Source of the DNA: Gracilaria domingensis
Lineage: Eukaryota > Rhodophyta > Florideophyceae > Gracilariales > Gracilariaceae
Assembly: GCA_022539475.1 (NCBI GenBank)
Contig: VCMS01000040.1
Coordinates: forward strand, 243,676 to 307,675
Length of the DNA stretch: 64,000 nucleotides
Reading direction: 5' to 3'
Of the stretch, positions 17,818-60,600 are shown piece after piece. The stretch's first letter is position 1; each line of letters begins with the position of its first letter. Under the pieces are notes generated by a model. It did no database searches, had not been told where the DNA came from, and worked only from the letters and a program-made list of their open reading frames with translations. Both the position numbers and the translations under genes were made by a program.

Positions 17818-18381
17818 TGTAGAGCAACGCAATTCGCGTGGTTATCAGGATGATGCGACTAATATAGTCAGGGATGAGTATAGGAGGATGCACTCGAAAG
17901 TTATGAGTTGGACCATATTTTGGAGGTTACTTTTGGATGGCTTTCCCAGATTTTTACCTGTAATCAGGGTTTCCATTGCTGGCTAGTACGGCTAGGTAGA
18001 CGCGTGTATGACACGACCGTGTGTGCATAATATGGGAGGATAGGTGGTGCACCTGAGGCGCCTGACACTGGATTAGCCACGTGTAGGGACCCCTGCGGGT
18101 GTGCACCATGTGTACATAGTTAGTTTAGACCTACTTAGGTGAGCTCGACCTCGCTGTCGCGAGCACCTTTGTAAATTCAACCCGAGCACTGCTCAAGAAA
18201 AAACTCTTTGTCGAGTAGCGCTCTTTTGAGTGGACTCTACAAGAGTGAGGCTCTGGCGCCAACCGCCTACGTAGGTTATCACTCTCACGAGTATAGCCGC
18301 GTCTGGTTACGGTGGTCCTACCCTCTCGGTACGCTTGAGGAACATCTGTCGTTGATGTCACGACTTGCGAGTCATACCCAG
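17818..18381 (+). mobile_element. Solo LTR, 5' part (inserted in the piggyBac transposase)
   Basis: Starts TGTAGAGCAACGC and is preceded by AATTT (17813-17817). The matching 3' part is 29953-30373, also followed by AATTT, so the two pieces form one LTR of about 980 bp with a perfect 5-bp target duplication. The full retrotransposon at 18382-29952 inserted inside it. With no internal region of its own it is a solo LTR left by LTR-LTR recombination. Confidence 0.85.
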
Positions 18382-19274
18382 TGTAGAGCAAACCCTCCTC
18401 AGGGATACCGTTTCGGTAGTGGCAATCATAACTTATGGAGACGCCCATCGATGGGGAACTCGAGGTTATGAGTAGCACGATGACGTAGATCCGGACCCGG
18501 AATGTGTACATGTGTACCACTATTTGGTTGTTTGGATGGAGTGATTCTTTTCATAATTTTTAGAAGTACCCCGTGGGTTCTGGTCCGCCACTGTCAGGAC
18601 TGCCCGGGACGGAAGGTGCATATGAGGTGCTTAGATTAATCTATTATTTAGATATTTTTGATAACCCTCTACAGGGCCGCTAATTCTACTACTTAGGTGA
18701 TGCCTCACCGCCATCACCAACCTAGTAAAGGTAACCCGGTGTGCCGCTCTAACTATTTCGCCTGCGCGACAACTCCAACTCCTCGCGGAGCGAGTTACCG
18801 CAACACGGTCTAGTTATCCCCCGGCTCCAACCAGGAGAGTTCACGCAGTGCATACCATCATTGGTCTTGTTTTTCTTTTGTTTCTCTTGTGACTCGTGGA
18901 GTGCACACATATTTGTTACCGACCGGTACTTTCTCTCCGCCCCAGTGCTTGGGTTTGTTTCTGTTCTTTCTTTTGTTTTTACCATTGGTTTGGTTCATTA
19001 CCGCCTATTTCTATTTAGTTGTTCCACCTTTGGATGTCTACATTTGGCTACAGATACCGTCATTGGTCAGCTACGATCTACACTACTGTGTCCGCCTTTC
19101 CTGGCCTTTTTCCCGTTCGGGCGTTCTTTCTCAACCCTGTGGTATAGCCTGAAGTCCTCGTGGATTTACAGCCACACCGGAGGATACGGGGTGCGCTGTC
19201 GCTGTGCAAACCTCTCTTGAGAGCGGAGATTCGAACTGCCTCGGTGGCTTTTCCCTTTCTGGGATTGCTCCACA
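18382..19274 (+). repeat. 5' LTR of copy 1
   Basis: Begins TGTAGAGCAAAC and ends TTGCTCCACA. It contains a T-rich stretch and, near its end, GATTCGAAC (19228-19236), which is a tRNA B-box-like GTTCGAATC on the opposite strand. Confidence 0.9.
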
Positions 19275-19277
19275 AAT

Positions 19278-19295
19278 TGGTCTCCCGACTTAGAA
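19278..19295 (+). other. Putative primer-binding site of copy 1
   Basis: Three bases after the LTR the sequence TGGTCTCCCGACTTAG starts with TGG, as expected for a site complementary to a tRNA 3' CCA end. I could not assign the tRNA. Confidence 0.5.
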
Positions 19296-19455
19296 GCTTA
19301 AGAACGGGTTAACTACAGTTGGTGTTAATTGTTGTTGATCGTTTTCGATTGGTTTCTTGTTGTCCAGTTTGGATATCTTTGTTACTTTTGTTGCCATTGT
19401 CTGGCCTTGGTTTGTTGCTGTACTGAAGTAATCAGTCCGACCACGTCTGGTTTAT

Positions 19456-21473
19456 ATGGCTGGCCTTTCAGAGGGATCTCGTGAAGGTTCGAACCGCTCC
19501 GCCGCCCGCGCGTCGAAGCAGGTGTCGCGGAATCCTACGCAGGAAAAGCCGACATCGGCCCAGGTGAAACAGAACCCGGATGTCCCGGCTACCCAGGCTG
19601 GTTGGTTGGCTGTGATATCTTCCCAATTGGGTTCTCTCGTACATGAGGTTGAAGAGTTGAAGACCCACGTGCAGGTTCTCCGTATATCGAATACCGATCA
19701 TCTGCAGGATATTCAAGATCTCCGGGCTCGTGTCTAGGAAGCCCAAGTTAGGGATGTTACTGCAGAACTACGCACCATGCGTAAGGATATTAATTCCATG
19801 TTGGAAGGTTTCGGTGCCCCAACCATATTCGTATCGAACATCGAAACTCGTTTCGAGACTCTCCAGAGTATGATGGAGCGAGCCCAGAGTCGCATCGATA
19901 CGCTGGAGGCTACTTTCCGGGCAGATGAAGAGTTCATTGCTGCCCAAGCAAGGGAAGATTCCCGCCCTCGGGTTTCAATCCGTCATTCTTCAAAGAAGTT
20001 CCGAAAGGACCGACCGACTACGTATGAATACCGTTTGGTTCGTACTGACTCCGACTCGGACAGTTCTACTACTTCGTCATCTGACTGGTCCAATGATGGA
20101 TATCGTGACCGCCGCGAGCGACCGACACGGTCCAAGGTTACCTATGCTGCGCACGGCACCATCATGACCCGCGAGAAGGGTAGGAATCACATTGGACTCA
20201 AAGAGTTGAAGCCCTCTAACATCCTGTTTCGGAAACTGTTATCGTATCGATATTATCGCTTAGACGATTCATCACTTGATCGTACTCCTCGTGGGACAGG
20301 TCGTGTGAAGGACTGTATCAATAGGATGGACCTCACGCTGAAGGATCACGCTTTCAGTGGTGAAGACCCAATTTTGGTACTGGACTTTCTCGCCCGTTTC
20401 GTATCGGAAGCCGCCATACTCATGATGAGTGAAGCCCAGGCTTTCGTGGCACTACCGTATTTCCTTAAAGAAATGGCAGAAGATCACTTTCGCTCCGTCA
20501 TGGGAGTTTCCCGTGCTTCGGAGGGAGGTGTAACTTTTTGGCCGGAAGCTGTTCAATACCTTCTGAGGTCATACGCCACTGGTACTGCGATCCAGTCTGC
20601 CATCTTGGGGCTTTACGCGATACAAAACAGAAATCCGGAGAAACGGAAACCCTTTATTCGACTCGCCTCAATAAGGCTTTCCATCCTTCTGGAAATGTAT
20701 ATTCTCACTATGAGCGATGCGCTTTGTTTTGCTATGGTTTAGATCCTGCCATCAGGACACTTGTGTCCCGGTATCGGGAATCCGACAGGAAGGCAACCTA
20801 CCTGGAACTGGTTCAGTTCGCCCAGGCAGAGGGAGATGCTTTGCGTGCTCGCCAACACCCGAAACATCGGTCTTCTAGGATACTCCATGCGGAGAACTCA
20901 CCATCACTCTCGTTACTCCACCGTTCTAAGGAAAATCCAGGTGTGGATAATTTTCATTTGGCTCAAAGCCAGGGCAGACAGTCCTTGCTTAGTACGGAGT
21001 TTCCGTCAACCTCAATTTTCTCTGAGGAAGACCCGGCTTTGTACGCGGGAACACAGGTTATACCACCGAAGGTCCCATATGCCAACAACACCACAGGTTT
21101 CAGTAGACCCGGTTGGCGGGATAACACTACTGCGCAACATCGGATGGATAACCGTACGGATACCCGTCCACCCTTCGATAGGTCAACGCTTATCTGCCAT
21201 GTTTGCTACCATCTTGGTCATGTTTCGACTCACTGTCAGTTCAATCTGAAAGATATGTCGAAGATTATCGAAGCTTATGAGTCCCTTAGGAAAGAAGAAC
21301 GTGCGCGCGTTCCGAATTTGTCCTACCAACAGGTCCGTTTGCTGTTCTTGCCAAACACCGTTGTATCGGTCTGCAACCTGGTGCCGGTATCTCTAGGAGC
21401 TCAAACCTCTGAGGTCGTTCAGTACTCAGACGGAGGCAAAACTGCTTCGGTGGATTCGCCTTCGAAAAACTAA
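19456..21473 (+). pseudogene. Gag polyprotein of copy 1
   Basis: Starts at the ATG of MAGLSEGSREGS. A coiled-coil-like stretch (HEVEELKTHVQVL to SRIDTLEATF), an acidic Ser-rich segment and a capsid-like helical region (DPILVLDFLARFVSEA) precede the zinc knuckle CHVCYHLGHVSTHC (C-x2-C-x4-H-x4-C) at 21195-21236. One TAG at 19735-19737 and one frameshift near 20600 break the frame. The protein should form the virus-like particle and bind the RNA genome. The stop at 21471-21473 lies two bases before the open pol frame, which is in the -1 frame relative to gag. Confidence 0.85.
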
Positions 21474-21475
21474 TT

Positions 21476-24400
21476 TTGGGAGTCTCCCCGAACGGAGGGG
21501 CGCCCACAGAGTCGAGGAGTGTGGCGCCCGAGGCGTCATCGCCTCGCTCCCCAGTCAAGATCCTTACTAGGAAATCGGCTGAATCCGACGTGAACTCGAG
21601 ACACTTTGGTGTTCTGCGTCGACCGTGGGTGCGGTATAGAAATCGCCGTATCCCGGATCAGGTTATGGTCATGGCCAAGTGTAACTACAAGATTTAAGCT
21701 GACCTTGGCTTGTCTAACCAGTTTATGGTTCGACAGTTATCTGTTCTAGATACAGGAGCTGTTCCTAACCTTTTGGTTAAATCGTTGTTGCCTGCCTCGT
21801 TACGGCCGTTGATTCGTCAAGGTCCATCGCTGGATATTGCCGATGCAAACAACAATCCGTTACGGACAGAAGGCTTCATTGACCTGATGGTTCGGCTCGG
21901 CCAATGTACAGTCCAATTGGAATTTCTCGTATGCGAATCACTAGCTGCTCCCGTTATTCTGGGCTGCGATTTTTGCGACAGGTTCGTCGAAGCGATTCGC
22001 CCGCGTTCCAAATGTGTGGAAATGGAAGATGGTTCAACCATACCGATTGTTCGGAAGCCGCTTCGGCAAGATTTAAAGCGTCAAGTTCCTCTCCCTTCCG
22101 CACAGGATAATCCAAACATGGATAGAAGTTCTACTCGTTTACAGTGTGCCCGTTCAATTTCGATTCCGGCGGAATCCCAAACCTGGGTCACTGTGAGCTC
22201 GGACCAACATGTTTTACGTGTCGTGCAACCGATACAATCATTGTATGATTCTCGTCGTCTTGCTCTCGCTAATGGAGTTGTTCATATTGAACCTCAGAAG
22301 CCTTTTAAGCTTTTGATAGCCAATTTGGGGCCTCAACCTCAATGGTTAACTAAAAACCAGGTTATTGGTTCAGTAATGCCGCATCCGGCCGCTGTAATAC
22401 CTACAAAGGTTACCCTCGCGGACGTACTCGGCGTACAACACCCTGAGAAGGGGGAAGAGGAGTTAATTGCAACCGTTTCGGATGTCAGTACGCCGAACGC
22501 ACCATTAGAGCCTGAGGCAAAGGCTAGTCCCCCGGGACAAGAACAGAAGGATCCTGTTAAGGAATTGGAAGAATTGAATCTGGAGCATGTACCAGACACT
22601 CATCGTGAGAAACTAAGTGATATGTTGAGGGAGTTTACCCCGATGTGGGATGGTTCCCTAGGAAAGATCTCGATTACCCAGCACAGAATTGATCTCCTTC
22701 CGAACACTCGGCTGATAGCGCAACACCCTTATAGGGCTGGCCCTAAGGCTAGGGAAGAAGGAGAAGCTCAAGTTGAGAAGATGCTTAAGGCTGGAGTCAT
22801 CGAACCGGCCCAATCCCGGTGGGCATCACCGGTAGTACTAGCTCCTAAGAAGGACGGATCGTGGCGATTCTGTATTGATTACCGTCGCCTCAATTCGGTT
22901 ACAGTTAAGGACGTCTACCCGATTCCACGAATGGACGAATGCATTGCCTCACTCGAGAGTGCTCAGGTTTTCACGGCCTTCGACGCAAATTGGGGATATT
23001 GGCAAGTTCCTATCCGCAAGGAAGACCGTGACAAAACCGGTTTCGTGTGCCATCAAGGCTTGTATCGTTTCAAACGAATGCCCTTTGGGCTCACAAATGC
23101 GCCCGCTACGTTCCAAAGAGCATTGGATATTCTACTGGCTCCATACAAGTGAAAGATCTGTTTGGTATACCTTGATGACATCATCATCTTTTCCAACAAC
23201 ATGGACGATCATTTGTCTCATGTGCGAGAAATCATGCGTGTTCTCCGCGATGCCGGAATAACTCTGAAGTTAAAGAAGTGCGAGTTTTTCACCGATTCGG
23301 TTCAGTATCTTGGACATACGATCCGTCCCGGAAAGCTTTCGATTGACGAAGTTCGTGTGAAATCCTTGAAGGAAGCAAAGCACCCGACGAACCAAACGGA
23401 ACTCCGTTCTTTTCTTGGACTTTGTAACGTGTATCGTAGATTCGTTCCGAATTTTGCCGAAGTCTCTTCTCCCCTTAATGAGCTTTTGAAGAAGGGCAGG
23501 CCAGTTGAGCTGGAACCCTTCAGGGAAGCGGAAGCTTCCGCATTTCAGTCCCTTGTGGACGCTGTAACGTCACCACCAGTTTTGGCTGTACCAACTCCTA
23601 GTTTACCACATTCGGTTGACACAGACGCTAGTGCCTACCAAGTTGGTTGCGCTTTGTTCCAAACCTTGGAAGACGGAACCCGTACACCGATTGGCTATTG
23701 GTCAAGGACACTGAATGTTCATGAGAAGAACTACTCAGTATCTGAGAAAGAATGTTTAGCCGTCGTCTGGGCATTGAACATACTGCGACCCTACTTAATG
23801 GGTACTAACTTCGTGGTGCATACCGACCATTCGGCCTTCCGTTTGCTCTTCGGAATATCGGAACCCTCTGGCAGGTTAATGCGCTGGCGTCTCCGTTTTG
23901 CGGAATTCGATTTCGAAGTTAATTGTAAGAAAGGTTCTCTGAACTGCCAAGCAGATGCCCTTTCTCGTCTAGGGACTAACGCCTATACATCCGCCACGGA
24001 AGACTTGGAGATACCGTGCTTTATGGTTATGACCAAGGATGGTTTGATCGAGACGATAGATGGTGACGTGTGTGATGATTTATTCGTTACCGAATCCACG
24101 GAACCCACGTCGGGTTTCTTTGTGCCTATTACTCCTGAGGAGATGATAAGAGAGCAGTTGTCCGATCCATTCTGTACGCAGATACGCTCTCGCCTCAATG
24201 GAGGTTTTCAGATCCCGTTCGCTTTGAATAACCAAGGATATTCGGTTCGTTTCGTTAATAAGGAACATCCACAGATTGTGGTACCTCATACTCCACAGCA
24301 GAGAGTTTTGCATCTGTCACATTATGTGAAACTGGGTGCTCATCCTGGTGGAAGGAAGTTGTATTTGACTCTACGCAGAGATTTCTATTGGCCCGTAATG

Positions 24401-25683
24401 GCGGTAGACTGCTACGCAGTTCGCCGTGGTTGTACGGAATGCTCAAAGAACAATGTCCGTCTCCGGAAATACTCGAAGAAGCTCACGCTTTTTCCCGCAA
24501 GGGCTCCACTAGAGTTCGTGGCGATTGATATTCTTGGACCGCTACTCCGTACCGCTCGTGGTCATCGTTTTCTTTTGGTTATTACCGACAGGTTCTCCAA
24601 ATTGGTTCGTACAGGTCCTTTAAGGACAATCACTGCAACGACGATAGCGCAAGCGTTCGTCCAGCATTGGGTTTTTGCTTACGGCCCACCTGTTCAGGTT
24701 CTATCCGACAATGGGGACAATTCGCTTCGAAATTTTTCCAAGACGTCTATCGTATCCTTGATGTCAGGAATCTGTTTACCACTACTTATCATCCCCAAGG
24801 GAACGGTAAATTTGAACGGTTCAACCGTACGATGCTTAACGCATTAAGATCCTATGTATCGGATCACCCTAAGAATTTGGACTTATTCACAGACGCTATT
24901 ACGTATGCTTACAACACACAGGTCCATCGTGTTACCGGTTTATCCCCATTTGAGCTCGTACTATCGAGGATACCGCCTCCGGTCGCTATCGAGTCTCAAC
25001 CCAAGTTAGGAACCTTCCCTTCACACCGGTTATATCGGGATACCTGGAAGGCTTGGTTAGGAAAGATGGTTCCGGTCGCTCGGAAAGCTATGTCTAAAGC
25101 ACAAGCTGCCTACAAGGCTAACTTCGACAAGCGAATTCGTACGCTGTTACCCTCAGTTCTTAATCCTGGCGACCTTGTCTTTGTCCGTAAGGAATATTAC
25201 AATCCTGAAAAGGAACCAAAGCACATACTCTCTCCTATTGCTGAGGGACCTTATAAGGTAGTTTCCGCCGGAACGGAGACTGTCGTACTGGATATCAATG
25301 GCTTTCATGAACGGCTCTCACGCGATCGCGTCACTGTTGCTCCCAATCCTACTGTGGAAACTATCGCTGTACCTCCACAGGGTAATTCAAGTGAAACTGA
25401 AGCCACTTCGCCGTCAGGGCCCGCTACAGTTCCGCATCGGGATCGCAGCTTGACTGATTTGCCGCAGGAGTCGGCTAATTCTTTATCTACTCTAATAGAG
25501 AATCCTGTGGACCCACACGCCCATGTAACCCCACCACCCGAGATTGTTACCGCATCGGTATCTCAGACTGAGAGGGGGAAGAGACGCATGAGGTTGTTTC
25601 GTCCTCGATACCGAGCTTCGCACCTCGCGGCGATGAGTTGCCACAGCGTGGAAATCCTCAGAACCAATTGGTTACTTCCGTGA
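21476..25683 (+). pseudogene. Pol polyprotein of copy 1: protease, RT, RNase H, integrase
   Basis: Aspartic protease is marked by SVLDTGA (~21745). RT is marked by WRFCIDYRRLN and VYLDDI (~23164), RNase H by VDTDASAYQVGCALF and VVHTDHSAF. Integrase has HLSHYVKLGAHPGGRKL with CTECSKN (zinc-binding), VAIDILGP...VITDRFSK, LSDNG and the Glu in NGKFERFNRT, followed by EGPYKVV (GPY/F module). Breaks are TAA at 21695-21697, TGA at 23150-23152 (in APYK*KICLVYLDDI, probably Trp) and a one-base deletion near 24715 within the DNG motif. All catalytic residues remain visible. The chromodomain lies further downstream, after a repeat array. Confidence 0.92.
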
Positions 25684-26039
25684 GGATCGTTCGTCCACTA
25701 CGAAGACTGTGTCCGCAGACCCTGGCTTGTCGTTTGCCGCGATGAGTTCACCGAAGTCTACCTTGTTCAGGTCATGCATAATGCTACAGAGCACACCCTC
25801 GTGGGAGACACAGCACAAGCGCAGAGCACGTGCCCACTCGCTTACTACGCTTCAGCGTCAGGAATTGCGACACGGCGTGTTCTCCCGCTTGGGCGACAAT
25901 TACAGTACTTAACAAAAATTTTTCAAGCTACCCTTGTTGAACGGTCTTGTCCGTTCAGAAACGGCGCATTGCGCAATGGAAATCGGCCAATTTGGCATAT
26001 TTTTGATGCATTACGGTGCCGCCGTCGCCCACCGCAATG

Positions 26040-26330
26040 AGCGGCGGGGCACAAGGACACTTGGTGTGTTGCACAGCCAATGGGATTCGTTTGCACACGC
26101 CCACGTGTCAGAAATCATGTCCAATGTGGATTGAGTGCACTACCAATGAAAATGGTTTGCTCACTTCCACGTGGCAGATGGACGAACCAATTAGATGGTG
26201 TTGCACAACAGGAATGTTTGGAAGTGCACATGGCCACTTGGCAGTTGTTCCCTCAATAGGAATCAGTTGCACAGAGCCACGTGTGTGGTGTTCCAACCAA
26301 TGGAATTGCTTTGCACTTGCAGGCAACACG
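26040..26330 (+). repeat. CCAAT/CACGTG repeat array of copy 1
   Basis: Irregular repeats of the form CCAATG - 8 to 12 nt - TTTGCAC - short spacer - CCACGTG recur (CCAATGGGATTCGTTTGCAC near 26069, CCAATGAAAATGGTTTGC near 26141, further partial copies to ~26330). A block very similar to the second unit occurs in the decayed relative near 52242. CCAAT and CACGTG are known binding motifs for NF-Y and for bHLH/bZIP factors. The array lies between integrase and chromodomain, where copy 2 also has a repeat. Confidence 0.65.
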
Positions 26331-26679
26331 GCGCGTAACCGCCGAGCTTCACCGTCAGAACGGTCAACTCCCGTGATATCGACAGGAATACTCGTATTCG
26401 AGATGCGATAACTTCGCACTACGCAGTCCAATTCGTATGGAATTTAACTTGTGACAATCAGCTCGTCGCCCTCTTTCAGGGAATACCTTGTTTGGTTAAT
26501 CTGCGCTTGAGACTATCGAACAACACGACAGTTGAATCGATACATCGATGCTTAATTGTGGAACCACTACTGGTTGTTGAAAGAGTCAATACGCCGTCAG
26601 GGCTGGACTCTTATACCCGCATCATCTTGGGAACTCCGTTAGGAGACAGTAGGGTGAATTCAACGACCGACCAAGCGGT

Positions 26680-26884
26680 CTATCCACGTGAGTACGTTGT
26701 GGAGAAACTTGTGAATCTAAACAAGCTCCAAATGGAAAGTGGCTTTATCGCGTGCGATGGTATGGATTTCCGGCATCGGAAGACACCCACGAGCCTGTGA
26801 GACACCTGCCTAGGTCTTTCATCGTTCGCTGTCACCGACGCACCGGTACACCACTACCGCCCAACATCGGCGAACCCAAACTGG
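26680..26884 (+). pseudogene. Chromodomain of copy 1 (frameshifted)
   Basis: YPREYVVEKLVN in one frame is followed in another by RWYGFPASEDTHEPVRHLPR and VRCHRRTGTPLP. This is the pattern of a chromodomain (EYVVEKI...W-G-P-SEDTWEP-ENLP) as found at the C-terminus of chromovirus integrases, where it directs integration to marked chromatin. The frameshift separates the first strand from the rest. Confidence 0.8.
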
Positions 26885-26929
26885 GTGACGCTACTGTAGC
26901 AATGACGCGCGTAGCCCGCAAAGGGAACT

Positions 26930-27135
26930 CTCGTTGCTCGAGAATGAGAAGAAGAAGAACTTGAAGTAGTTGCTCTATGAAGAGAAGAAGAAGATGAACT
27001 TGCGAATGAAGTTGAAGGATAGTTACCATGGAATGGTCTACCAATTATGGTCATGAAGATTTACCGATAACGGTCATTATGAAGATTCAAGGAAGAAGAA
27101 GAAGAAGAAGATCTACGAAGAGGAAGCAAAGAAGA
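26930..27135 (+). repeat. Purine-rich GAA tract
   Basis: Several GAAGAAGAAG runs (near 26948, 26981 and 27090-27110) make a strongly purine-rich plus strand between the chromodomain and the 3' end of the antisense ORF. Confidence 0.6.
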
Positions 27136-27247
27136 CTTATCAGAAGTTTACCACTAGTTGTTGGTTTTTTTATTTCGTTTACCTATCATTCAGGTGATGT
27201 AGTTGGTCAACGCCAAGCGTTCCCGAGCATCCCACAAAGGAAGTTCC

Positions 27248-28988
27248 TCATGATTGGAAGTACTGCGCCGCGAATGCGCGCAACTCTCCGTCGTGGAAAC
27301 GTTCCCGGGAATGTTCACACCCATTGAGGTCAGGAACTGGTGATGGTAACCGCTTCTGGGTCAGCCACCACGGGATTGTCCATAGCTGGGTTGTAGCCAA
27401 AGTCCGCACCCGGAGCGCCCATTCCACATCTTGGTCAACGCTCACTGCGTCGTAGTGCATCATTGGATCGTCGAGGTCGGCCGGCGGTGCGAACTCGTCA
27501 GCATCGACATACCCCCTCGGGTACCATGAGGAATGATACGCGGTGCGTCTCGAATGGCCGCAGGCGAACATAACACGCCCTCGTAGGGATCGTAATAGAC
27601 GAAATCACAGGCTCGGTAACTCCTACGTCCTGGAGAACGGTCGAAGACCCTAGGCTGGCCACGACCACGCTGGTTAAAAGGCACGGTGTCCCAATTCACG
27701 CTGTCAATGACATCGACCAGGTATCTGAGTTCTTCCAAGTTGGACTCACCCCCAAGGGGAACTCGTAGGTCGAGCGTACGAAGATTGTTCCGTAGTGCCA
27801 TCGGAAGATACCAGATTCGGCACTGGTCATGCGCTTCCCATAGGAGGAACACGGCCACACGGGCAATCCATTCGGTTAGGAACACGGACCAGTAACCGCT
27901 TTGTCGGTTGGCCAAGAGCTTCGAACCTAGGTAGGTCAAGCACGGAGGCAACTCTGGGAGACATCCACGAGGAACTTCCACCATACCCCACCAATCGGGC
28001 AGGGCTCGGTAACGTCCATGAAGGAATCGCGCTGCGATCGCTCGAGCTTCCACGTTCTGGTAAGGAACCAAGAATCCGAATTCGGAACGAGCCTTGCGCT
28101 CATACCGGACGCGGTCATGCAAGTAATCGCCTCGCGGCTTGCTTCGCATATACCGGAACTCGGCACGGAGCAACGGTCGCTCCCAGCACAACAATTCCTC
28201 ACGGACAACCGGCGCGCTAATCCATCAAACTGTTGGATTGTCCCCGCAAGGGCAGCCAGTTGGCACCGTAAGATTCTTCTCCGCGAGTTCGGAAGATGGC
28301 AACATCGAACCCGTACTCGGGCGGAATGAGGGTATTACCAGGGGTACGGACCAAGCGTTGGTATGCGATTCTCGCCATGTTACTTCTCGCGTCATCACGA
28401 GTCTGACCATGTCTCACGGGAGATGACCAAGAGGTATCGCTACGCGCACGCGCCAATCCACGACTGGGCAACCGCAACTGGAAGGTCACCAGGGAGTACA
28501 CCATTCTGGCATACGAGTCCAACAATGCGGCGTCATTTACCGCTACGGTATGGAACCAAGGTGCCCGGGAATATAATCGGGGGTCTTGCAAGGGATCGCA
28601 GTTGATCAGTACGCTACGCGGAATCCAAGTTGGAATTGCCGGCACGGTAGGCATAGGATCGGATGCGTTCCACGCGCCCACGTCCAGGGCTTGACCAAGC
28701 GGTACTGTTGGAGCAGAGGAACGAACAGAAACCGGTATGAATCTGACCCATCAGGGGATTTGAAGGCCCCGCACCAGGGAAGGTCCAGCGTTCTGGAAGG
28801 TCCCGCTGCGGACGGAGTCTGCTGTCCGGAAGACGGAGGAATCTGTTGGTTAAATTGCTTTCCGACATCGGAGATTTCGGAGGAGAAAGTAGGAAAGGTA
28901 TAGGTACACTCGCGTTCGAGAGGTCTGGAGAGACTGGTGTGATATCCGAGTGTGGATCTATGGAAGCCGAGCGTTCGGAACCCGCCAT
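27248..28988 (-). pseudogene. Conserved antisense ORF (aORF) of copy 1
   Basis: Reads from Met at 28988, 76 bp inside the 3' LTR, towards pol. Frame pieces 28988-28614, 28681-28217, 28194-27460 and 27571-27248 join into one protein of about 580 residues. Conserved segments shared with copies 2 and 3 are SRAPWF, MARIAYQRL, PPEYGFDVA, WERPLLRAEFRYMR, FGFLVPYQ, VEVPRGC, ELPPCLTYLGS, TEWIARVAVFLLWE, DRSPGR, DFVYYDPYEG and a C-terminal LRAFAAQYF. I recognise no domain. No signal peptide or membrane segment is evident; the protein is rich in Arg, Trp and Pro. It is convergent with the chromodomain end of pol. Confidence 0.8.
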
Positions 28989-29052
28989 CGCGGTCGGATA
29001 TTTATACTGATGTCCGCACGGAACTCGTCGTCAACCAGGGTGGTTTCCTCTT

Positions 29053-29064
29053 GAGAAGAGGATG
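29053..29064 (+). other. Polypurine tract of copy 1
   Basis: GAGAAGAGGATG directly precedes the 3' LTR, as expected for the plus-strand primer. Copies 2 and 3 and the decayed relative have GAGGAGGG(G/A)GAGA or a close variant here. Confidence 0.65.
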
Positions 29065-29952
29065 TGTAGAGCAAACCCTCTCGGGATACCGTTTCGGTAG
29101 TGGCAATCATAACGTATGAGACGCCATCGATGGGGAACTCGAGGTTATGAGTAGCACGATGACGTGATCCGGACCCGGAATGTGTACATGTGTACCACTA
29201 TTTGGTTGTTTGGATGGAGTGATTCTTTTCATAATTTTTAGAAGTACCCCGTGGGTTCTGGTCCGCCACTGTCAGGACTGCCCGGGACGGAAGGTGCATA
29301 TGAGGTGCTTAGATTAATCTATTATTTAGATATTTTTGATAACCCTCTACAGGGCCGCTAATTCTACTACTTAGGTGATGCCTCACCGCCATCACCAACC
29401 TAGTAAAGGTAACCCGGTGTGCCGCTCTAACTATTTCGCCTGCGCGACAACTCCAACTCCTCGCGGAGCGAGTTACCGCAACACGGTCTAGTTATCCCCC
29501 GGCTCCAACCAGGAGAGTTCACGCAGTGCATACCATCATTGGTCTTGTTTTTCTTTTGTTTCTCTTGTGACTCGTGGAGTGCACACATATTTGTTACCGA
29601 CCGGTACTTTCTCTCCGCCCCAGTGCTTGGGTTTGTTTCTGTTCTTTCTTTTGTTTTTACCATTGGTTTGGTTCATTACCGCCTATTTCTATTTAGTTGT
29701 TCCACCTTTGGATGTCTACATTTGGCTACAGATACCGTCATTGGTCAGCTACGATCTACACTACTGTGTCCGCCTTTCCTGGCCTTTTTCCCGTTCGGGC
29801 GTTCTTTCTCAACCCTGTGGTATAGCCTGAAGTTCTCGTGGATTTACACCCACACCGGAGGATACGGGGTGCGCTGTCGCTGTGCGAACCTCTCTTGAGA
29901 GCAGGGATTCGAACTGCCTCGGTGGCTTTTCCCTTTCTGGAATTGGTCCACA
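29065..29952 (+). repeat. 3' LTR of copy 1
   Basis: Begins TGTAGAGCAAAC and ends TTGGTCCACA. Differences from the 5' LTR are a few substitutions and 1-2 bp indels, mostly in the first 120 bp. Confidence 0.9.
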
Positions 29953-47582: not shown

Positions 47583-49640
47583 CTAGATGTCGAATAGCCC
47601 TACACCGGGGGTATCGCTCGTACCGGTGACGTGCTCCCTCAGAAGCCCCCGCATGGCCGATTCGTCGGTCACCGTGTCCGGCACGTCTACACCGCCTCCA
47701 CGTAGAAACTCGCGGATCATCGAAGCGCGCGAAGTTATGTCCGAGATAACTGCCCCGGGCAGTGTGAAAGGAAGGCCACGCGGAAGAGATTGAGGAGCCG
47801 CAGTGGCGGTCGTGCCGATTAGTTCGGAAATGCCGTTCTCGTCCGTAGGCTTGGAGTCTCCTTCCTCGTCCATGGGACTAGCGTCCTCGCCGAACGATTC
47901 ATCCGGATGGTCGCCATCGTCGTCGACATAGACAAAGCCACAAGGTTGGTCGGCGGGAATATCCCGTTCCTCACGTCGTCGCTCTTCGGCCTCCCCGGCT
48001 GAAATGACCTTGCGATTCCACTGGTCGTAATACACAAAATCCCCAGCGTTGACGTTACGGCCAGGGGAACGATCACTAGCTCTGCGGATTTCTTCCGACA
48101 CCTGACTTGCAGGCATGTCGTTCCATTCGACGGCGTCCATCGCACGGACTAATGAGATGGCCTCTTTGGCGTTTCGCACGCAGCCGAGTACCTCGGATAG
48201 ATCCCGAACACAGATGGATCCCCGGACCTTTTCTGGTATGTACCAGAGACGGCAAGCGTCGTAGGCTTCCCATAGAAGAAACGTCGCAACGCGGACGGTC
48301 CACTCGGTGGCCAAGATGCTCCATACGCTGCGCGGCGGGTTATTCATTAGGTACGACCCTATGTACGTGACATAAGGTGGTAGCTCGACGTGACAACCGC
48401 GCGGTACCTCCACCTCATGCCAAAACGATGGCAGTGGCACATATCGCACACGGTGCGAATGGCGTGCAATCCGCTTGACTTCCGTACACTGGTACGGCAC
48501 CAGGACTTCAAAACGGGAGCGCTACTTCCTCTCCGAACGGAGGCGATCAAAGAAGGAAGACCGTGTGGAAGGCGCATGTACCGGAATTCGGGTCGTAACA
48601 CTGGTCGGTCCCACAGGATCAGATCCTGGTGGGGCTGCACCACATCCGCATATCGATCGATCTCATCTAGCGCGTGAGCTAGTCTGTCGCTATAGTCACG
48701 TTCGCCGACAGTTAGGTACCGAGCAACGTCAAAGCCGTACTGCAATGGGACCTCGTGTTCATTCGGCGCATTGGAATGCCGCGCGTATCCAATGCGGGCG
48801 AGCTCGTTTCGGGCAAACTGCCTCGTCTGGTCTCGGCCAACCTACGAACACCGGAAATGGCCGAAATATGGCCGAAACATGACCGAAATGTGGGCGTTTA
48901 GCTCGAAAAAATTTGAGAACGTGTAACTGGTGGAGATAAACAATTTTCATTTTTCTTGGTGGCCATATTTCGGCCACATTTGGGTCATATTTCGGTCATA
49001 CTTCGGCCATTTCCTTGAGAATGAAAATTGTTTATTTTCACGAAATAGGTGTTTTCACAAATTTTCGAGGTAAACGCCCACATTTCGGTCATGTTTCGGC
49101 CATATTTCGGCCATTTTCGATGTTCGTAGGGCAAAGAACAAACAGCTGGGATGAACCGCCACGCGGACGAGCCAATCCTAGGAATTGGTCACTGCTGCTG
49201 GGAGCCCACCAGGTAGCGCGCCGTTGATCGCGTAAGATTCCACCAACACGGTATCGCGCACAGCTTGTGGGTCAAACCATGGAGCTCGGACAAAGAGATC
49301 GCTGTGTGTAAGCGGGTCTCGGCTGCGCAACGAGGCGGGAGTCGGCCAACGACAAAAGGTTGTCGGCATACCTGCGTTGAGCCAATCCCAAACGGGAGCC
49401 CCCTCGTAGTGCGACGGGCCTGGAGTGTCTCTGGCAGAAGCCGGAGGATGCATCGCATGGCGCGGAGGGGACTCAGACCGGAATTTCGGCGCGTTGGAAA
49501 CGGTGGCTCACGACGTCGACGAAGGCAGACGCTGTGATCCTTGCGGGTTCCTGTTAGAAGTGGGCAGATGCAGCGACATCGTTGCGACTTCGTAGGACGC
49601 TTGTGAGGTGGGTGAAAGCTGATTGACTCCGGTGTTTCGC
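47583..49640 (-). pseudogene. Conserved antisense ORF (aORF) of copy 2
   Basis: Reads from near the 3' LTR towards the chromodomain. The C-terminal ~305 residues (48500-47583) are fully open: VRYVPLPSFW, VEVPRGCHVELPPYVTYIGS, ATEWTVRVATFLLWEAYDAC, SDRSPGRNVNAGDFVYYD, then an acidic stretch PCGFVYVDDDGDHPDE. Upstream pieces are YGFDVARYLT and LWDRPVLRPEFRYMR (48745-48359), and RDPLTHSDLFVRAPWFDPQA with VRDTVL and GALPGGLP (49453-49178). Breaks are TGA at 49508-49510, TGA after VTNS, a frameshift near 48520 and a 290-bp MITE at 48841-49130. Unknown function. The residues conserved with copies 1 and 3 run the whole length of the protein. Confidence 0.8.
48841..49130. mobile_element. MITE with TGGCCGAAATA repeats (copy A)
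   Basis: 290 bp with long inverted ends: CCTACGAACA... pairs with ...TGTTCGTAGG, and the array GGCCGAAATATGGCCGAAAC with ATGACCGAAATG and GGGCGTTTA is repeated inverted at the right end (49070-49120). A second, inner inverted repeat (AAACAATTTTCATT / GAATGAAAATTGTTT) lies inside. No coding capacity. Possible 4-bp target duplication CCAA/GCAA. It interrupts the aORF of copy 2, so it is younger. Confidence 0.85.
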
Positions 49641-54684: not shown

Positions 54685-55571
54685 TGTAGTGCAAAACCAC
54701 TCCACAGACGGAGACAAAAACCACCCGCGTGTGCGGTAGACACTCAAGGTGTTCAGCCTTGCTCCCTATGTCGCGCGGCTGAGTGGAAGAGCCCTCCGTT
54801 GAGGTCGACACGTTCCGGGCGTAACTCTGGGCGACGTCTACCTGCCTTACAGACGGAAGTGAAGTGGGAGAATTTACCGATATGGCGGTCCCAAGTGTGA
54901 AGGGCACGCCACAGAAGTGGCAAGATCCGCGTTAGCCGTGGAAAAGAGGAAAAAATGGGGGGAGGGATCGGGCGGTGTATACGAACACGAGCCCGGGGAA
55001 CACGGGTGGATGGCGAAATCAGCGCTGAAAAAACCTGTACACACAGGGCGGAACACACCACAACCGTGGGTAAACAATGTAGAAATATGGATACAGAAAG
55101 AAACAATAGAAACAGGAAGTAGCACCGTAGTGCACGGACAGTGGTTCCTCGGCGCACAAGGGGGGATAACCACACTGGAATGGTGGCGATGCGCTCCTCA
55201 ACGGAGCAAGATCGGTCACCAGCGGAGCTAGTTAGAGCCAAGATTTCCCTTGTTGGGTTTACTTAGTGGGGGCGACGGCGGTCGCTGTCGCCTAAGTACT
55301 AGCACTACGCTACCCTAGATTACTAGTCTTTGCTGGCCCCGTGGCCAGTATTGGCCACGTGTGCCTCACTGTACGCCCTTGACTCACGGGGCGTCCGCCC
55401 AGGGCGGCCACACTACAAATGTCCGGAAGCCATACCCCTCTCTGGTAAACTCCCAAATTGGGGGAATCCTCCCTATCGATACTCATAACCGAGGGTGCTA
55501 CCGTCAAAAGGGATCTAACAACTACGAGTTTCCATTAGCTGCTTTCCCCGCAAAAGCGGTTTTGCTCTACA
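54685..55571 (-). repeat. 3' LTR of copy 3
   Basis: 887 bp. On the minus strand it starts TGTAGAGCAAAACCGC and ends GTGGTTTTGCACTACA, so the first and last ~12 bp are imperfect inverted repeats of each other. Confidence 0.9.
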
Positions 55572-55583
55572 TCTCCCCCTCCT
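55572..55583 (-). other. Polypurine tract of copy 3
   Basis: AGGAGGGGGAGA on the minus strand, adjacent to the LTR. Confidence 0.8.
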
Positions 55584-55600: not shown

Positions 55601-57468
55601 ATGCACTCGGTCATTCCCATCACCATGAGTATAAGTACTCCTCCCCATCCGGGAGCCTTTCCCGACATTTTGGTCAACGCACTGGCAAACGATAGCGCCC
55701 TCATCATCCCTGCTCTTCCGCAGCTCCCCCTCGCAATGCAAGGCAACAGTTCGAACTACCCGCCTCATCCGCCGCGGTACCTGCGTCGCGGTTCTCCAAT
55801 TCTCCGGCGCTCCGGTACTGCGCGCCTCTTCGTTCCCGTGCAAGATCCGTTCTGTACCCTACCCGACAGGGACTCCTCCTGCCTCCGTGGCAGCTGCCGA
55901 TGCCACTCCGCGGACTGCCGCTCCCGCGAATATCCCCGATTGAAGTGCACCGTCTGCCGCAGCAGTTCCGGCCACCTCCGGTGGATGGCCCACGCCGAGC
56001 TCCCTCCGAGTGAGGACCTCGCACTATCATAGCGGTTTCTTCGCCAGGGCTCCCTGGATCGATACCGAAGCCGTTCGGGACAACTCCCTAATCGACTATT
56101 ATGCCGTTGATGGAGTGCTCCCCGGCGGTCTGCCAGTCAGCGTAGTCCGGTCGCGGGACTGGTTAGCCCACATTGCGATTCCGCGCGACTCCCTCTGGTG
56201 GGAGAGCAACGAGTCCGAAATGTATGCTCGGAGCGAGATGACCCGCTTGGGATATGCCCGGTTCTACCGGTCTCCGAACGATCTCCCGGTGCCACCGGAG
56301 TATCGTTTCGATGTTGCGCGATACCGTACTTACGAGGAAGCCCAGTATGAGGACCGCCTCGCGGCGATATTTCCCGACCTTGGGAGCTACGCTGACAGCG
56401 TTCAGTCTTACCAGAACCTTGTGCTCTGGATGAGGCCGATTCTCCGAGCGGAGTTCCGATATCTCCGCAAGTCAACGCGGGGCGATTTCTTCAAAGACTC
56501 CGCGACGAGCGAAAGTGGAGGTCCCGATTCGGGTTGCTGATTCCCCACCAGTGTGTGGAGGTCGAGCGCCTTGCGGCGAGCTTCCGTTATGAACGGTATG
56601 TCCCAATCCCCGATTTCTGGTTCCGGGCGGAGGTGCCACGAGGATGTTGCGTGGAGCTTCTTCCGTGCCTGACATACGTGGGTTCCCGGTTCCTTCCGGC
56701 ATCGAATCCGCCTCGCGGTCTGTGGAGTCTCCTCGCTACGGAATGGACTGTCCGCGTTGCGGCCTTTCTCCTCTGGGAGGTGTACGACGCGTACCGGTCG
56801 TGGTTTGTACTGGAGTTATTCCGCTATTCCATTCGCGGTTCGTATCTTTCCGAGGTCCTCGGTTCTGTCTGCAACGAGCGGGAACTCCGTGGGCTTCTTG
56901 ATGTCCTCGACGAGGTCGATTGGGACCAGGTTCCCCCTGGGCAGGTGTCCGAGGGCATCCGCCGTCGGTGGGACCGATCTCCAGGACGCGATGTGAACGC
57001 GGGAGACTTCGTTTTCTTCGACCCATGAGAGTGGGAGCACATCTCTGCTCAGGAGGCTGCCGCGCGGCGTGCTGCGGAGGGTACCGTCCTGGCAGAACAC
57101 CCGAGAGGGCTCGTCTTCGTCGAAGGGAGTGACGAAGATGAGGAACTCCCTGCTGTGGAGGACGTACCGGCCGAAGGGTCGGAAGTGGTGGAGGAAGTGG
57201 ATATCACCGAGGTCAGTGTGCCCGTTCCGGCTCTCCCGGCGATTCCGGCTGCCCAGATAGGTCCGGCTCCTTCGGCAGGAGGCGCCGGTGCCAGCACCGA
57301 TCCGCAGGAGCGGTTATCCGCAACTTCCTTAACGGAATGGAACTGTTCGTTCCCCCGTCGGTGACGGACCTTGCCACGCTGCAGCAGCTGGCTGCGCAAC
57401 ACTTCCGTGGTGGCGGCGGAGGCTCTACTGCTGATGGTAGTGGATTCTTCTCCGGTCTTGGAGGTTAG
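55601..57468 (+). pseudogene. Conserved antisense ORF (aORF) of copy 3
   Basis: Starts 17-41 bp inside the polypurine tract (ATG 55601 or 55625) and runs opposite to pol. N-terminal part: low complexity, Pro/Ser-rich. Then come GGWPTPSSLR, FARAPWIDTEAVRDNSLIDY and LPGGLP. Further on are MTRLGYARF, VPPEYRFDVARYRT, LWMRPILRAEFRYLR, VEVERLAASFRYERYVP, AEVPRGCCVELLPCLTYVGS, LATEWTVRVAAFLLWEVYDA, WDRSPGRDVNAGDFVFFDP and HPRGLVFVEGSDEDEE. The C-terminus is SVTDLATLQQLAAQHF followed by a Gly/Ser tail and TAG at 57466-57468. Frameshifts near 55950, 56530 and 57320 and one TGA at 57026 break it. It ends 182 bp from the pol stop codon, convergent. No known domain recognised. Confidence 0.85.
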
Positions 57469-57649: not shown

Positions 57650-60600
57650 TCAGCCTACTTGGGCCTTGTCCAGCGAGCCTGGTATCGCTGTTCGGGTTCT
57701 CCGGTGGTACTGCAGTACCTTCGACCGCGGTATATGCTGGATTGGCCCGGTAGTGTCCTCCTCGGGAAGGTAACCGTACCAGCGGACCTGGTGCTCCAAC
57801 TCTCCGTTGTAGCTGTATCCATGTCCGGCGTTGCGGTCCATTACGAACTCCTTTTTGAAGGTCTCCCTCTCCGTACGCGGAGCAGTTGAAGTCCTCTCTT
57901 CGAGGGCCTGAGCTTCACCTCCGCGGTTGCGGTGTCCGTCTCCGGTCGCCGGTAGGGCTTCCCGTATACTGGGCGACTTGTCCCTTGTTCGCCAGGGTTC
58001 CTCGTGGAGAGTCACTGTCCGCGACACGGGGTCGCCTTCCACATCCTTGTGGGTCGTTCTGTCCTTCCAGTCTGCTCTAACGGCGAGCTGCCGTGACTTT
58101 CCGGGCTTGGGAACCCGTGGTGAGGGAGAAACTCCCGCTTGGCGGCGGTTGAGCGAGTGGTGCACCGTCACGTGCCGTGGTGGCGGTTTGGCACCCGGCG
58201 GGCACGTGCCGGCTTTCCCTGTGCTTGCTTCGGGGTGTTCACTGTCAGCGACAGGTCTTGTGAGCTCGTTCGGGGCTTCCGTAACGTCTCCGTTGTCCAC
58301 GATGGCACTGTCAGCCTTAGGCGGCGGTTCTTCTGACTGTTGGGGCACTTGTCGGTCCGTGCGCTCCCCGTTGGCACTTGGGGTTCGATGGAACGCCGTG
58401 GCTCTGATTGAGGCTTGCAAGCGTCGCTGCGGCATTGCGCCCTCCCCTGGAGGTTCTCCGGTGTCATCTGGTAGGTCTCCGGTGAGCGGGCGTGCCGTGA
58501 GCACACGGTGCGACGACGTGCTCCGTTATTCCGGTTTCTTGGTTACATCCTCTCTCGAGTCCGAGGCTTGCATCTTATGGGCAGTCTTCCGCCACTGCGA
58601 TTGTTCTTCCGTACTCGGTACGGTCTCTCTGGCCGTGATTTCAAGCGCGAGAGTGGGCGTCGGTATCGCGCTTTGCCCCTCCTCCTGCGGGGTTTCCACG
58701 CTACGCGACGAAAGCGACGAAGAACTAGCGTCTACCTTCCCCTCTTCAGCTTGAGCTGGGGGTGTGGGGAGTACTATCCCGGGTGGCGGAGCGATGCGCG
58801 TACGCTTTGCCGATCGAACCATGGCGGTCGGGTTCTTCTCCGGCTCTGACGGGAGGTCAGCCAGGCCACGCTCTGGGTGCGGTTGGATCATCAGCCGTTG
58901 TTGGCTCTCCGCTGCGAAAGCGGGTGCTTCCTGCGGCGAGGCGATATCCGACGGTGTCAGTGATGAACTCCGGGACTCCGGCTTTGGTGCCGGTACGACC
59001 CAATCGAGCGAAAAATGCTCGTGGGCTCGCTCGACATCGAGGACAACCGTTGTTTCGGTGGACGACACTACCCTGCAGGGGCCGTTAGCGATTGGTGACA
59101 ACTTGTGCCTCTTCGCCTTCTCGGGGTTGTAGTACTCCTTGCGGAGGAAAACGTAGTCATTATCCCGAATTGGAGGGGAATTCCGGCGCACCCTAGCGTC
59201 GAAGTTCCGCTTATACGGGGCCTGAGCCTTAGCGAGGTTTCCCTGAACCCTCGGGACAAAGCGGGTCAACCAGGCCTTCCAGGCGTCCCTGCGTAGACGG
59301 TGTGACGATAATTTGGCCAACGTTGGTTGTGATTCGAGAGCCACCGTTGGTGGAGCGCGCGAGAGCACTAACTAGAATGGCGAGAACTTCGTCGTGCGAT
59401 GCACCTGCGTATTGTAGGCGTATGTCACCGCATCGGTGTAGAGATCCCAATCAGTTGGGTGTTCTGACACGTATGTCCGCAATGCGTTTAACATCGTGTG
59501 GTTGAATCACTCCACTTGTCGGTTGCTTTGCGGGTGGTAAGTGGTCGTGAACCAGTTCTGGATGTCCAAGATCCGACCTACGTCCGGAAGAACTTCGCCG
59601 TGAACTGCGAGCCGTTATCCGATAACGAATCAATCGGTGGTTCGTAGACAAACACCCAGTGGGTGACAAAGGCTTGTGGCACCGCACTAGCGATAATCTT
59701 CACGAGAGGGACTGTCCCCATCAACGTCGAGAAGCGATCCGTAATGACCAGTAGGAACCGGTTGTTCCGACGTGTTCCGACGAACTCTCCGAGGATGTAG
59801 ATTGCGACAAACTAAAGAGGTGCCCGTGGTGGGAAGAGAACCAATTGCTTGGAACACTTCCGCAGCTTCACGCGGTTCTTCGCACAATCCAAGCACCCAC
59901 GCACCCTGGCGTCTGCATCAAAGGCCATTGCTGGCCAGTAGAAGTCCCCGCGAAGGGTGTAGTAAAGCTTTCTTCCACCGGGGTGGCCTGATAACTTCGC
60001 GTAGTGCGCTAAGATCAGAACTCGAAACTTTAACGAGTGTGGCACCACAATCTGTGGCCTGGGTCCGACTTTTCGGATTAGATACCTCTGATCGTTAGTG
60101 AGAAAAGGAGATTTGGGCTCCCCCGTTGAGACGGACGCGAATCTGCATGCATGTGGGGTCCGTTTGTTGCTCCCGGATTAGCTCCTCTGGAGTGATTGGG
60201 ACAAACGCTCCCGGCACGAGTTGCGCGTCTGACGTGGCCAGGATGGCATCACAGATATCTGTCTCCGAGTCATCATCGGTATCTTCCCCCTCACCTTCTC
60301 CAAGGAGGAAACAGGGAACGTCCAGATCATCAACTGGTTCTGCCTCCGCGCCTGTCGCCAGACCGGAGAGAGCATCGGCCTGAGTGTTCAGAATTCTCTT
60401 CTTGTAACGGAACTCGAAGTCGAACTCTGAGAGGGGGAGGCGCCACCGCATCAAGCGGCCAGAGCGCTCTGCGATGGAGAGAAGCCAACGCGACGCAGCG
60501 TGATCGGTGTTTACCACAAAGTTGTTTCCCATCAGATAGGAGCGAAGAGTCTGCAGTGCCCACACGACTGCCAGACATTCTTTCTCGGGCACCGAGTAAT

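What the first reader, a model, noticed from the sequence alone, without database searches (positions are those of the whole stretch)
55601..57468. Conserved antisense gene inside a chromovirus family: best witness, copy 3
Seen in sequence: opposite to pol and starting just inside the 3' LTR there is a ~600-residue frame with motifs shared with the two other readable copies (RAPW-D, PPEYxFDVAR, LRAEFRYxR, EVPRGCxVEL, TEWTVRVAxFLLWE, DRSPGRxVNAGDFVYYD). The copies differ a lot in DNA, but these protein blocks persist in the same order, including a C-terminal LAAQHF-like end. Known: some plant Ty3/gypsy lineages carry antisense ORFs near the 3' LTR. Inference: this is an independent, undescribed element-encoded protein that was under purifying selection, perhaps for particle assembly, silencing evasion or regulation of the sense transcript.
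Basis: partly seen in the sequence, partly recalled or inferred. Interest (0 to 1): 0.88.

Follow-up and report, generated by a model that had tools for sequence, protein, structure and literature searches.

The report
Antisense accessory gene in seaweed retrotransposons
Several families of jumping genes in a red seaweed genome carry an extra gene on the opposite DNA strand, with what looks like its own switch, and evolution has kept the protein it encodes intact although its job is unknown.

Summary
The antisense protein is real, but copy 3 is a broken witness: two stops and at least two frame changes. The genome (77.9 Mb) is probably a Gracilariales red alga, judged from the three named relatives. 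It holds at least 285 places with the protein (capped lists) in at least five sequence families. Many have open frames of 580 codons or more; in families A, D and F the gene lies opposite to pol, downstream of RT. Selection is clear: 16 of 17 family-A comparisons give dN/dS 0.13-0.33; families A-D are 36-43% identical. New here: the best TATA-like match lies 46-50 nt from the 3' polypurine tract in 11 of 15 sequence groups (0 of 400 shuffles), not in the one ORF-less group held; the box is quasi-palindromic and weak in several groups. In family A the coding signature starts at the second methionine (M37). Layout: Pro-rich N-terminus, ~360-residue core, acidic linker, short C-terminal motif; no recognised Pfam, NCBIfam or PDB family. 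A recent subfamily (40 matches) keeps a family-A-like pol end but lacks the gene, so it is not needed in cis. Best reading: a trans-acting, probably regulatory, accessory protein, a new variant of the known antisense ORF between pol and 3' LTR. Function is inferred; no expression or structure data.

The parts
55845..56495 (+). Copy 3, antisense protein, first recognisable block; one in-frame stop
   Evidence: tblastn vs L011 protein, translation
56483..57145 (+). Copy 3, antisense protein, second block in another frame; stop after FVFFDP
   Evidence: tblastn, translation
57307..57468 (+). Copy 3, C-terminal block (..LQQLAAQHF..) in a third frame, with its stop
   Evidence: tblastn 57307-57405 E 2e-5, translation
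55630..55637 (+). Copy 3, TATA-like box (TATAAGTA), 46 nt from the polypurine tract
   Evidence: sequence
55572..55583 (-). Copy 3, 3' polypurine tract (sense strand is -); the 3' LTR begins TGTAGAGC at 55571
57650..58504 (-). Copy 3, 3' end of pol (sense strand)
   Evidence: ORF; DNA match to the pol end of other copies
47598..49525 (-). Copy 2, antisense protein in pieces (305-codon open piece 47583-48500); pol on + at about 41.9-45.6 kb
27523..28717 (-). Copy 1, antisense protein in pieces (244-codon open piece 27460-28194)
28999..29006 (-). Copy 1, TATA-like box (TATAAATA), 46 nt from the polypurine tract
18381..19274 (+). Copy 1, 5' LTR (98.5% identical to the 3' LTR)
29064..29952 (+). 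Copy 1, 3' LTR

Best explanation
LTR elements of this genome carry an independent accessory gene antisense to gag-pol, between pol and the 3' LTR. Shown by sequence: a conserved protein (599-681 residues from the first ATG, 563-628 from the second methionine), purifying selection in that frame, and a TATA-like box at a fixed 46-50 nt from the 3' polypurine tract. Inferred from these: the gene is transcribed from its own core promoter inside the element and, at least in family A, translated from the second methionine (M37). Inferred and less sure: the protein acts in trans as a regulatory or nuclear accessory factor of the element, working like plant Grande gene23 or retroviral antisense proteins; the ORF-less subfamily would then borrow it or do without it.
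For: Many intact copies. Position: 60 of 150 scored RTs have an opposite-strand hit 4.4-5.8 kb downstream, against 2 same-strand pairs downstream and 2 RTs with any hit upstream; 79 of 150 after adding. NG86 dN/dS against L011 is 0.13-0.33 in 16 of 17 family-A frames, 0.25 in B, 0.19 and 0.26 in C, 0.17 in D; the other five frames hold 5-27 stops in six sequences examined. Relatives in Gracilariopsis chorda (65%) and Agarophyton chilense, and unnamed proteins at 35-54%. TATA-like box in one 5-nt window in 11 of 15 groups; shuffle maximum 6 in 400; none at that place in ORF-less L069. Variable sites by codon position in family A: 3/8/3 in codons 2-36, 5/6/21 in codons 37-120, 68/65/184 in the core; the B pair agrees in direction (dN/dS 0.63 in the leader, 0.33 after M60). 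Gene models P0003 and P0005 start at the matching methionine. Acidic linker (net -3 to -17) in 15 of 15 rows.
Against: A subfamily with a family-A-like pol end but no antisense gene amplified recently, so the gene is not needed in cis. The TATA-like box is quasi-palindromic: on the sense strand 8 of 15 groups score best at the same place, so the motif alone does not fix the direction. Taken singly, only 5 of the 11 boxes beat shuffles at p<0.05; D, one F group and the C group are weak. The 11 groups are related by descent and D and B count twice. L010 bears the gene but has no such box. The G. chorda gene model P0001 starts at the upstream ATG, against M37. For families B and C no scored RT partner was found, only the adjoining polypurine tract and LTR. 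L021 has dN/dS 0.62. No expression data, no fold, no recognised DNA-binding domain; 'regulatory' rests on analogy and the acidic linker.
Confidence: 0.58

Rival explanations
1. The antisense protein is a structural or packaging protein (a second particle component) made from a separate transcript.
Against: No similarity to the element's gag-like protein (hhalign probability 0.2%; one broken gag-like sequence only); a particle protein would be expected on the genomic transcript; ORF-less elements amplified.
Confidence: 0.16
2. The protein counters host silencing of the element (RNA silencing or chromatin repression).
For: Trans action fits an ORF-less subfamily amplifying beside it; antisense transcription itself would invite silencing (inference).
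Against: No recognised domain; no small-RNA data.
Confidence: 0.16
3. The antisense RNA is what matters (dsRNA or interference with the sense transcript) and the open frame is a by-product.
For: TATA-like box at fixed spacing; a dsRNA role is discussed for plant antisense ORFs (PMC7264820, passages seen).
Against: Protein-level constraint: dN/dS 0.13-0.33 and recognisable relatives at 35-54% identity.
Confidence: 0.04
4. The frame is a chance or decaying open frame carried along by amplification.
For: The three window copies are broken.
Against: Intact frames in many copies and several families, relatives in other species, third-position excess.
Confidence: 0.01

Closest known systems
Antisense ORF of maize Grande (gene23) and relatives in rice RIRE2 (PMC7264820, passages seen)
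   Different: Plant hosts; no plant protein appeared or 68 among the named ones; Grande's protein is reported as nuclear and its gene as transcribed, here neither is tested
Retand antisense ORFs with TRP28 / PF04195 (PMC11963269, abstract and passages seen)
   Same: Antisense ORF is a standing feature of a Gypsy lineage; function unknown; DNA binding suggested there
   Different: Non-chromovirus lineage of flowering plants; PF04195 has no match in this genome or in the proteins scanned
Boty antisense gene brtn of Botrytis (named in PMC7264820; its own paper not read)
   Same: Non-plant LTR element with an antisense gene in the same place
   Different: Fungal host; no protein named as fungal appeared
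HTLV-1 HBZ (named in passages; HTLV antisense promoter)
   Same: Antisense gene at the 3' end of a retroelement; would work like it if the regulatory reading is right
   Different: HTLV's antisense promoter is inside the 3' LTR, here the TATA-like box is in the internal region; no bZIP match in Pfam scans

Membership tests
[quoted passage not shown]
   Window copies and families A, D, F; for B and C only the side next to the polypurine tract and LTR was seen
Antisense additional ORF between pol and 3' LTR (aORF-3R) | Present in most copies, not a single transduction | tested here: met
   79 of 150 RTs by capped lists, 10 of 150 with the ORF-less module, 61 unresolved; of 8 unresolved sampled, 7 carry it
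Antisense additional ORF between pol and 3' LTR (aORF-3R) | Antisense transcript | not testable with these tools
   No RNA data; only the TATA-like box
Retand TRP28 antisense protein | PF04195 domain | tested here: not met
   0 matches at E<=10 in the genome (among 14 control genomes it rang once, below the cut-off) and none in Pfam scans
Chromovirus (chromodomain Ty3/gypsy) | RT, RNase H, integrase in that order, with a chromodomain after integrase | tested here: inconclusive
   Order seen in copy 1; Chromo PF00385 in copy 2 only at E 0.023, 15.1 bits against a cut-off of 25.1; no RT tree was made
Gag/capsid protein | Similarity to the element's gag-like protein | tested here: not met
   hhalign probability 0.2%; a single, broken gag-like sequence
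Env-like protein | Transmembrane segment | tested here: not met
   Highest 19-residue hydropathy mean 1.2-1.5 in the 6 of 15 rows scanned
HBZ-type bZIP protein | bZIP domain | tested here: not met
   Pfam at E<=1 gives only E3_binding 0.029 and DEC-1_N 0.31, each in 1 of 15 members

The most novel reading that the evidence does not exclude
Gracilariales LTR elements share an old antisense gene with its own promoter, whose protein is a diffusible regulator of the element; the ORF-less subfamily, in which the whole 3' module (antisense gene plus LTR) differs, is a natural parasite of or escapee from that regulation.
Probability: 0.3. Interest if true: 0.8.

Novelty: new variant of a known kind. 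Interest (0 to 1): 0.62.

Why it matters
Antisense genes next to the 3' LTR are reported in plants, a fungus and retroviruses, but their function in retrotransposons is open. Here a protein family not linked by sequence to those cases is kept in at least five sequence families of another lineage, with a position-locked promoter candidate and a natural ORF-less subfamily as contrast. That makes the question of what the antisense gene does for the element testable by strand-specific RNA, 5' end mapping and structure work on one protein.

Tried and rejected
Homology to plant TRP28 (PF04195) and to the plant mobile domain (PF10536): no match in the genome (for PF10536 the control rang nowhere, so that search shows nothing). 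Homology to gag: none. Pfam, NCBIfam, PHROGs and PDB sequence searches: only chance-level lines. Viral contigs and plasmids: none. tRNA and Rfam scans of the window: nothing. My first idea was an antisense promoter inside the LTR; the TATA-like box lies inside the element, so I dropped it as the main reading. The inner polypurine tract that brackets the gene in family A was not found by the same pattern in the other families held, so it is not made part of the system.

Limits: the genome searches score only the best candidates, so copy counts are lower bounds. The 17 family-A frames were picked from 48 family-A loci held (L011-L058) for a long open frame; they share L011 as partner and are not independent (L043 and L044 give the same values). 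In one search, 6 of 16 between-group pairs gave no usable dS. The leader count rests on 11 of 17 frames. The groups are related by descent, so the shuffle test measures a conserved place, not independent origin; ungapped identity understates their likeness.

Full report
What was checked. Copy 3 has pol on the - strand and the antisense protein on +. But the frame is broken: a stop in the first block, a change of frame near 56483-56495, a stop after FVFFDP, and a further change of frame before the C-terminal piece. The other two window copies are also in pieces. Copy 1 has LTRs at 18381-19274 and 29064-29952, 98.5% identical.

Genome-wide. The window is part of a 77.9 Mb genome in 680 contigs. 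Searches with three forms of the protein gave 129, 88 and 78 scored matches out of 1,057, 1,273 and 1,098 first-look candidates; ten family-A places recur in the third list, which leaves 285 places. Two core searches gave 150 scored matches each, out of 942 and 954 candidates. With no stop in the match and an open frame of at least 580 codons: 63 of 129, 45 of 88, 60 of 78. At least five sequence families can be told apart: A (typically 610 codons), B (651), C (710-721), D (660), and F, seen in L072-L077 (46-53% to D in the best pieces). Identity between A, B, C and D is 36-43%.

Position. Of 150 scored RT matches, 60 have an antisense-protein hit on the opposite strand 4.4-5.8 kb downstream; 2 same-strand pairs were counted downstream, and 2 RTs have any hit within 9 kb upstream. 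Nineteen more were linked after adding. Ten have the ORF-less module instead, and 61 are unresolved because the lists are capped. Eight of the 61 were sampled: seven carry the protein, C113 does not. The hits linked are from the A and D lists. No scored RT was linked to the B and C list, so for these families the pol side was not shown, only the polypurine tract and LTR on the other side.

Host and relatives. Named relatives are Gracilariopsis chorda BWQ96_10156 (65% over 100% of the query) and two Agarophyton chilense proteins, both in Gracilariaceae, order Gracilariales. A core search added seven unnamed proteins at 35-54% identity. I infer a red alga of that order; the species was not given. 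Viral contigs and plasmids gave nothing.

Selection. NG86 pairs: 17 family-A frames against L011 give 0.13-0.33 in 16 cases and 0.62 in L021, whose N-terminus reads differently. One B pair gives 0.25, two C pairs 0.19 and 0.26, one D pair 0.17. L011 against window pieces gives 0.16-0.23 in three of four cases and no usable dS in the fourth; 6 of 16 between-group pairs were saturated. In most of the nine pairs split by region the core is more constrained than the linker. The other five frames hold 5-27 stops in the six sequences examined, so an overlapping sense gene does not explain the signal.

Promoter and start. Sequence groups were aligned at the 3' polypurine tract. The best TATA match on the antisense strand falls 46-50 nt from it in 11 of 15 groups; the largest count in any 5-nt window in 400 dinucleotide shuffles was 6. 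Against this: the box is quasi-palindromic, and on the sense strand 8 groups score best at the same place; singly, 5 of the 11 matches beat shuffles at p<0.05; D and B each fill two groups. The four exceptions are the ORF-less L069; L010, an ORF-bearing broken copy; a second polypurine tract in L040 (not resolved); and the one at window 54477, upstream of which no antisense protein is found. In A and B the box lies inside the first codons of the longest frame. In family A, variable sites show no third-position excess in codons 2-36 (3/8/3; 11 frames) but a clear one in codons 37-120 (5/6/21) and in the core (68/65/184); the one B pair agrees in direction. So the start is probably M37 in A and perhaps the matching M60 (B), M54 (C) and M38 (D), where gene models P0003 and P0005 also start. 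The G. chorda model P0001, however, starts at the upstream ATG.

Protein. Proline-rich N-terminus with PLPQ in 7 of 15 rows, a ~360-residue core with invariant Arg, Glu, Gly and Trp positions, an acidic linker (net -3 to -17 in 15 of 15 rows) and a C-terminal motif of about 40 residues in most rows. No family or solved structure matches (the one PDB line has E 2.2). No fold was obtained.

The ORF-less subfamily. C14 and C12 match L011 at 90.8% over 1.36 kb at the pol end, then carry a different ~1.3 kb module without a long frame and a different LTR start. The module has 40 matches, 17 of them full-length at 99-100% (its own place included). It is therefore recent, and the antisense gene is not needed in cis. 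C_L060 and C_L062 share the first part of the antisense gene (no difference in 162 codons, 99.4% in 359) but are about 80% alike after it, which points to recombination inside the gene.

Literature. The general kind is known: PMC7264820 and PMC11963269 (abstracts and passages; [quoted passage not shown] In the searches for red algal cases no listed title or abstract start describes one; those papers were seen as listings only, and most subscription journals are not in the library.

Verdict. A real, conserved antisense accessory gene with a likely promoter of its own. The regulatory role is inference.

Noticed in passing
G000:C14:362999-364299 and 39 other matches (L069, L070): A subfamily with a family-A-like pol end has a different ~1.3 kb 3' module without the antisense gene, and a different LTR; 17 of 40 matches are full-length at 99-100%.
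   Followed up: partly
L060 and L062: Two family-C copies are nearly identical in the first 521 codons of the antisense gene and about 80% alike after it: in-gene recombination.
   Followed up: no
L011 about 1347 and 3326; also L038, L039, L045, L057: In family A a second polypurine tract much like the 3' one lies on the pol side of the antisense gene, so the gene is bracketed by two.
   Followed up: partly
3' LTR of L011, L061, window copies 1 and 3: GTTATGAG lies about 80 nt inside the LTR in these four; in C_L060 it is about 138 nt inside, and the pattern was not found in the B, F and ORF-less stretches scanned.
   Followed up: no
G000:C144:60656, 72246, 83836: Three RT matches spaced exactly 11,590 bases: probably a tandem array of one LTR element.
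   Followed up: no
window 18381-29952: Copy 1 has LTRs 98.5% identical but broken pol and antisense frames, so it may have moved with help from other copies or hold assembly indels.
   Followed up: no
window about 54477 (+): An extra polypurine tract and LTR start on the + strand, with no antisense protein found upstream.
   Followed up: partly
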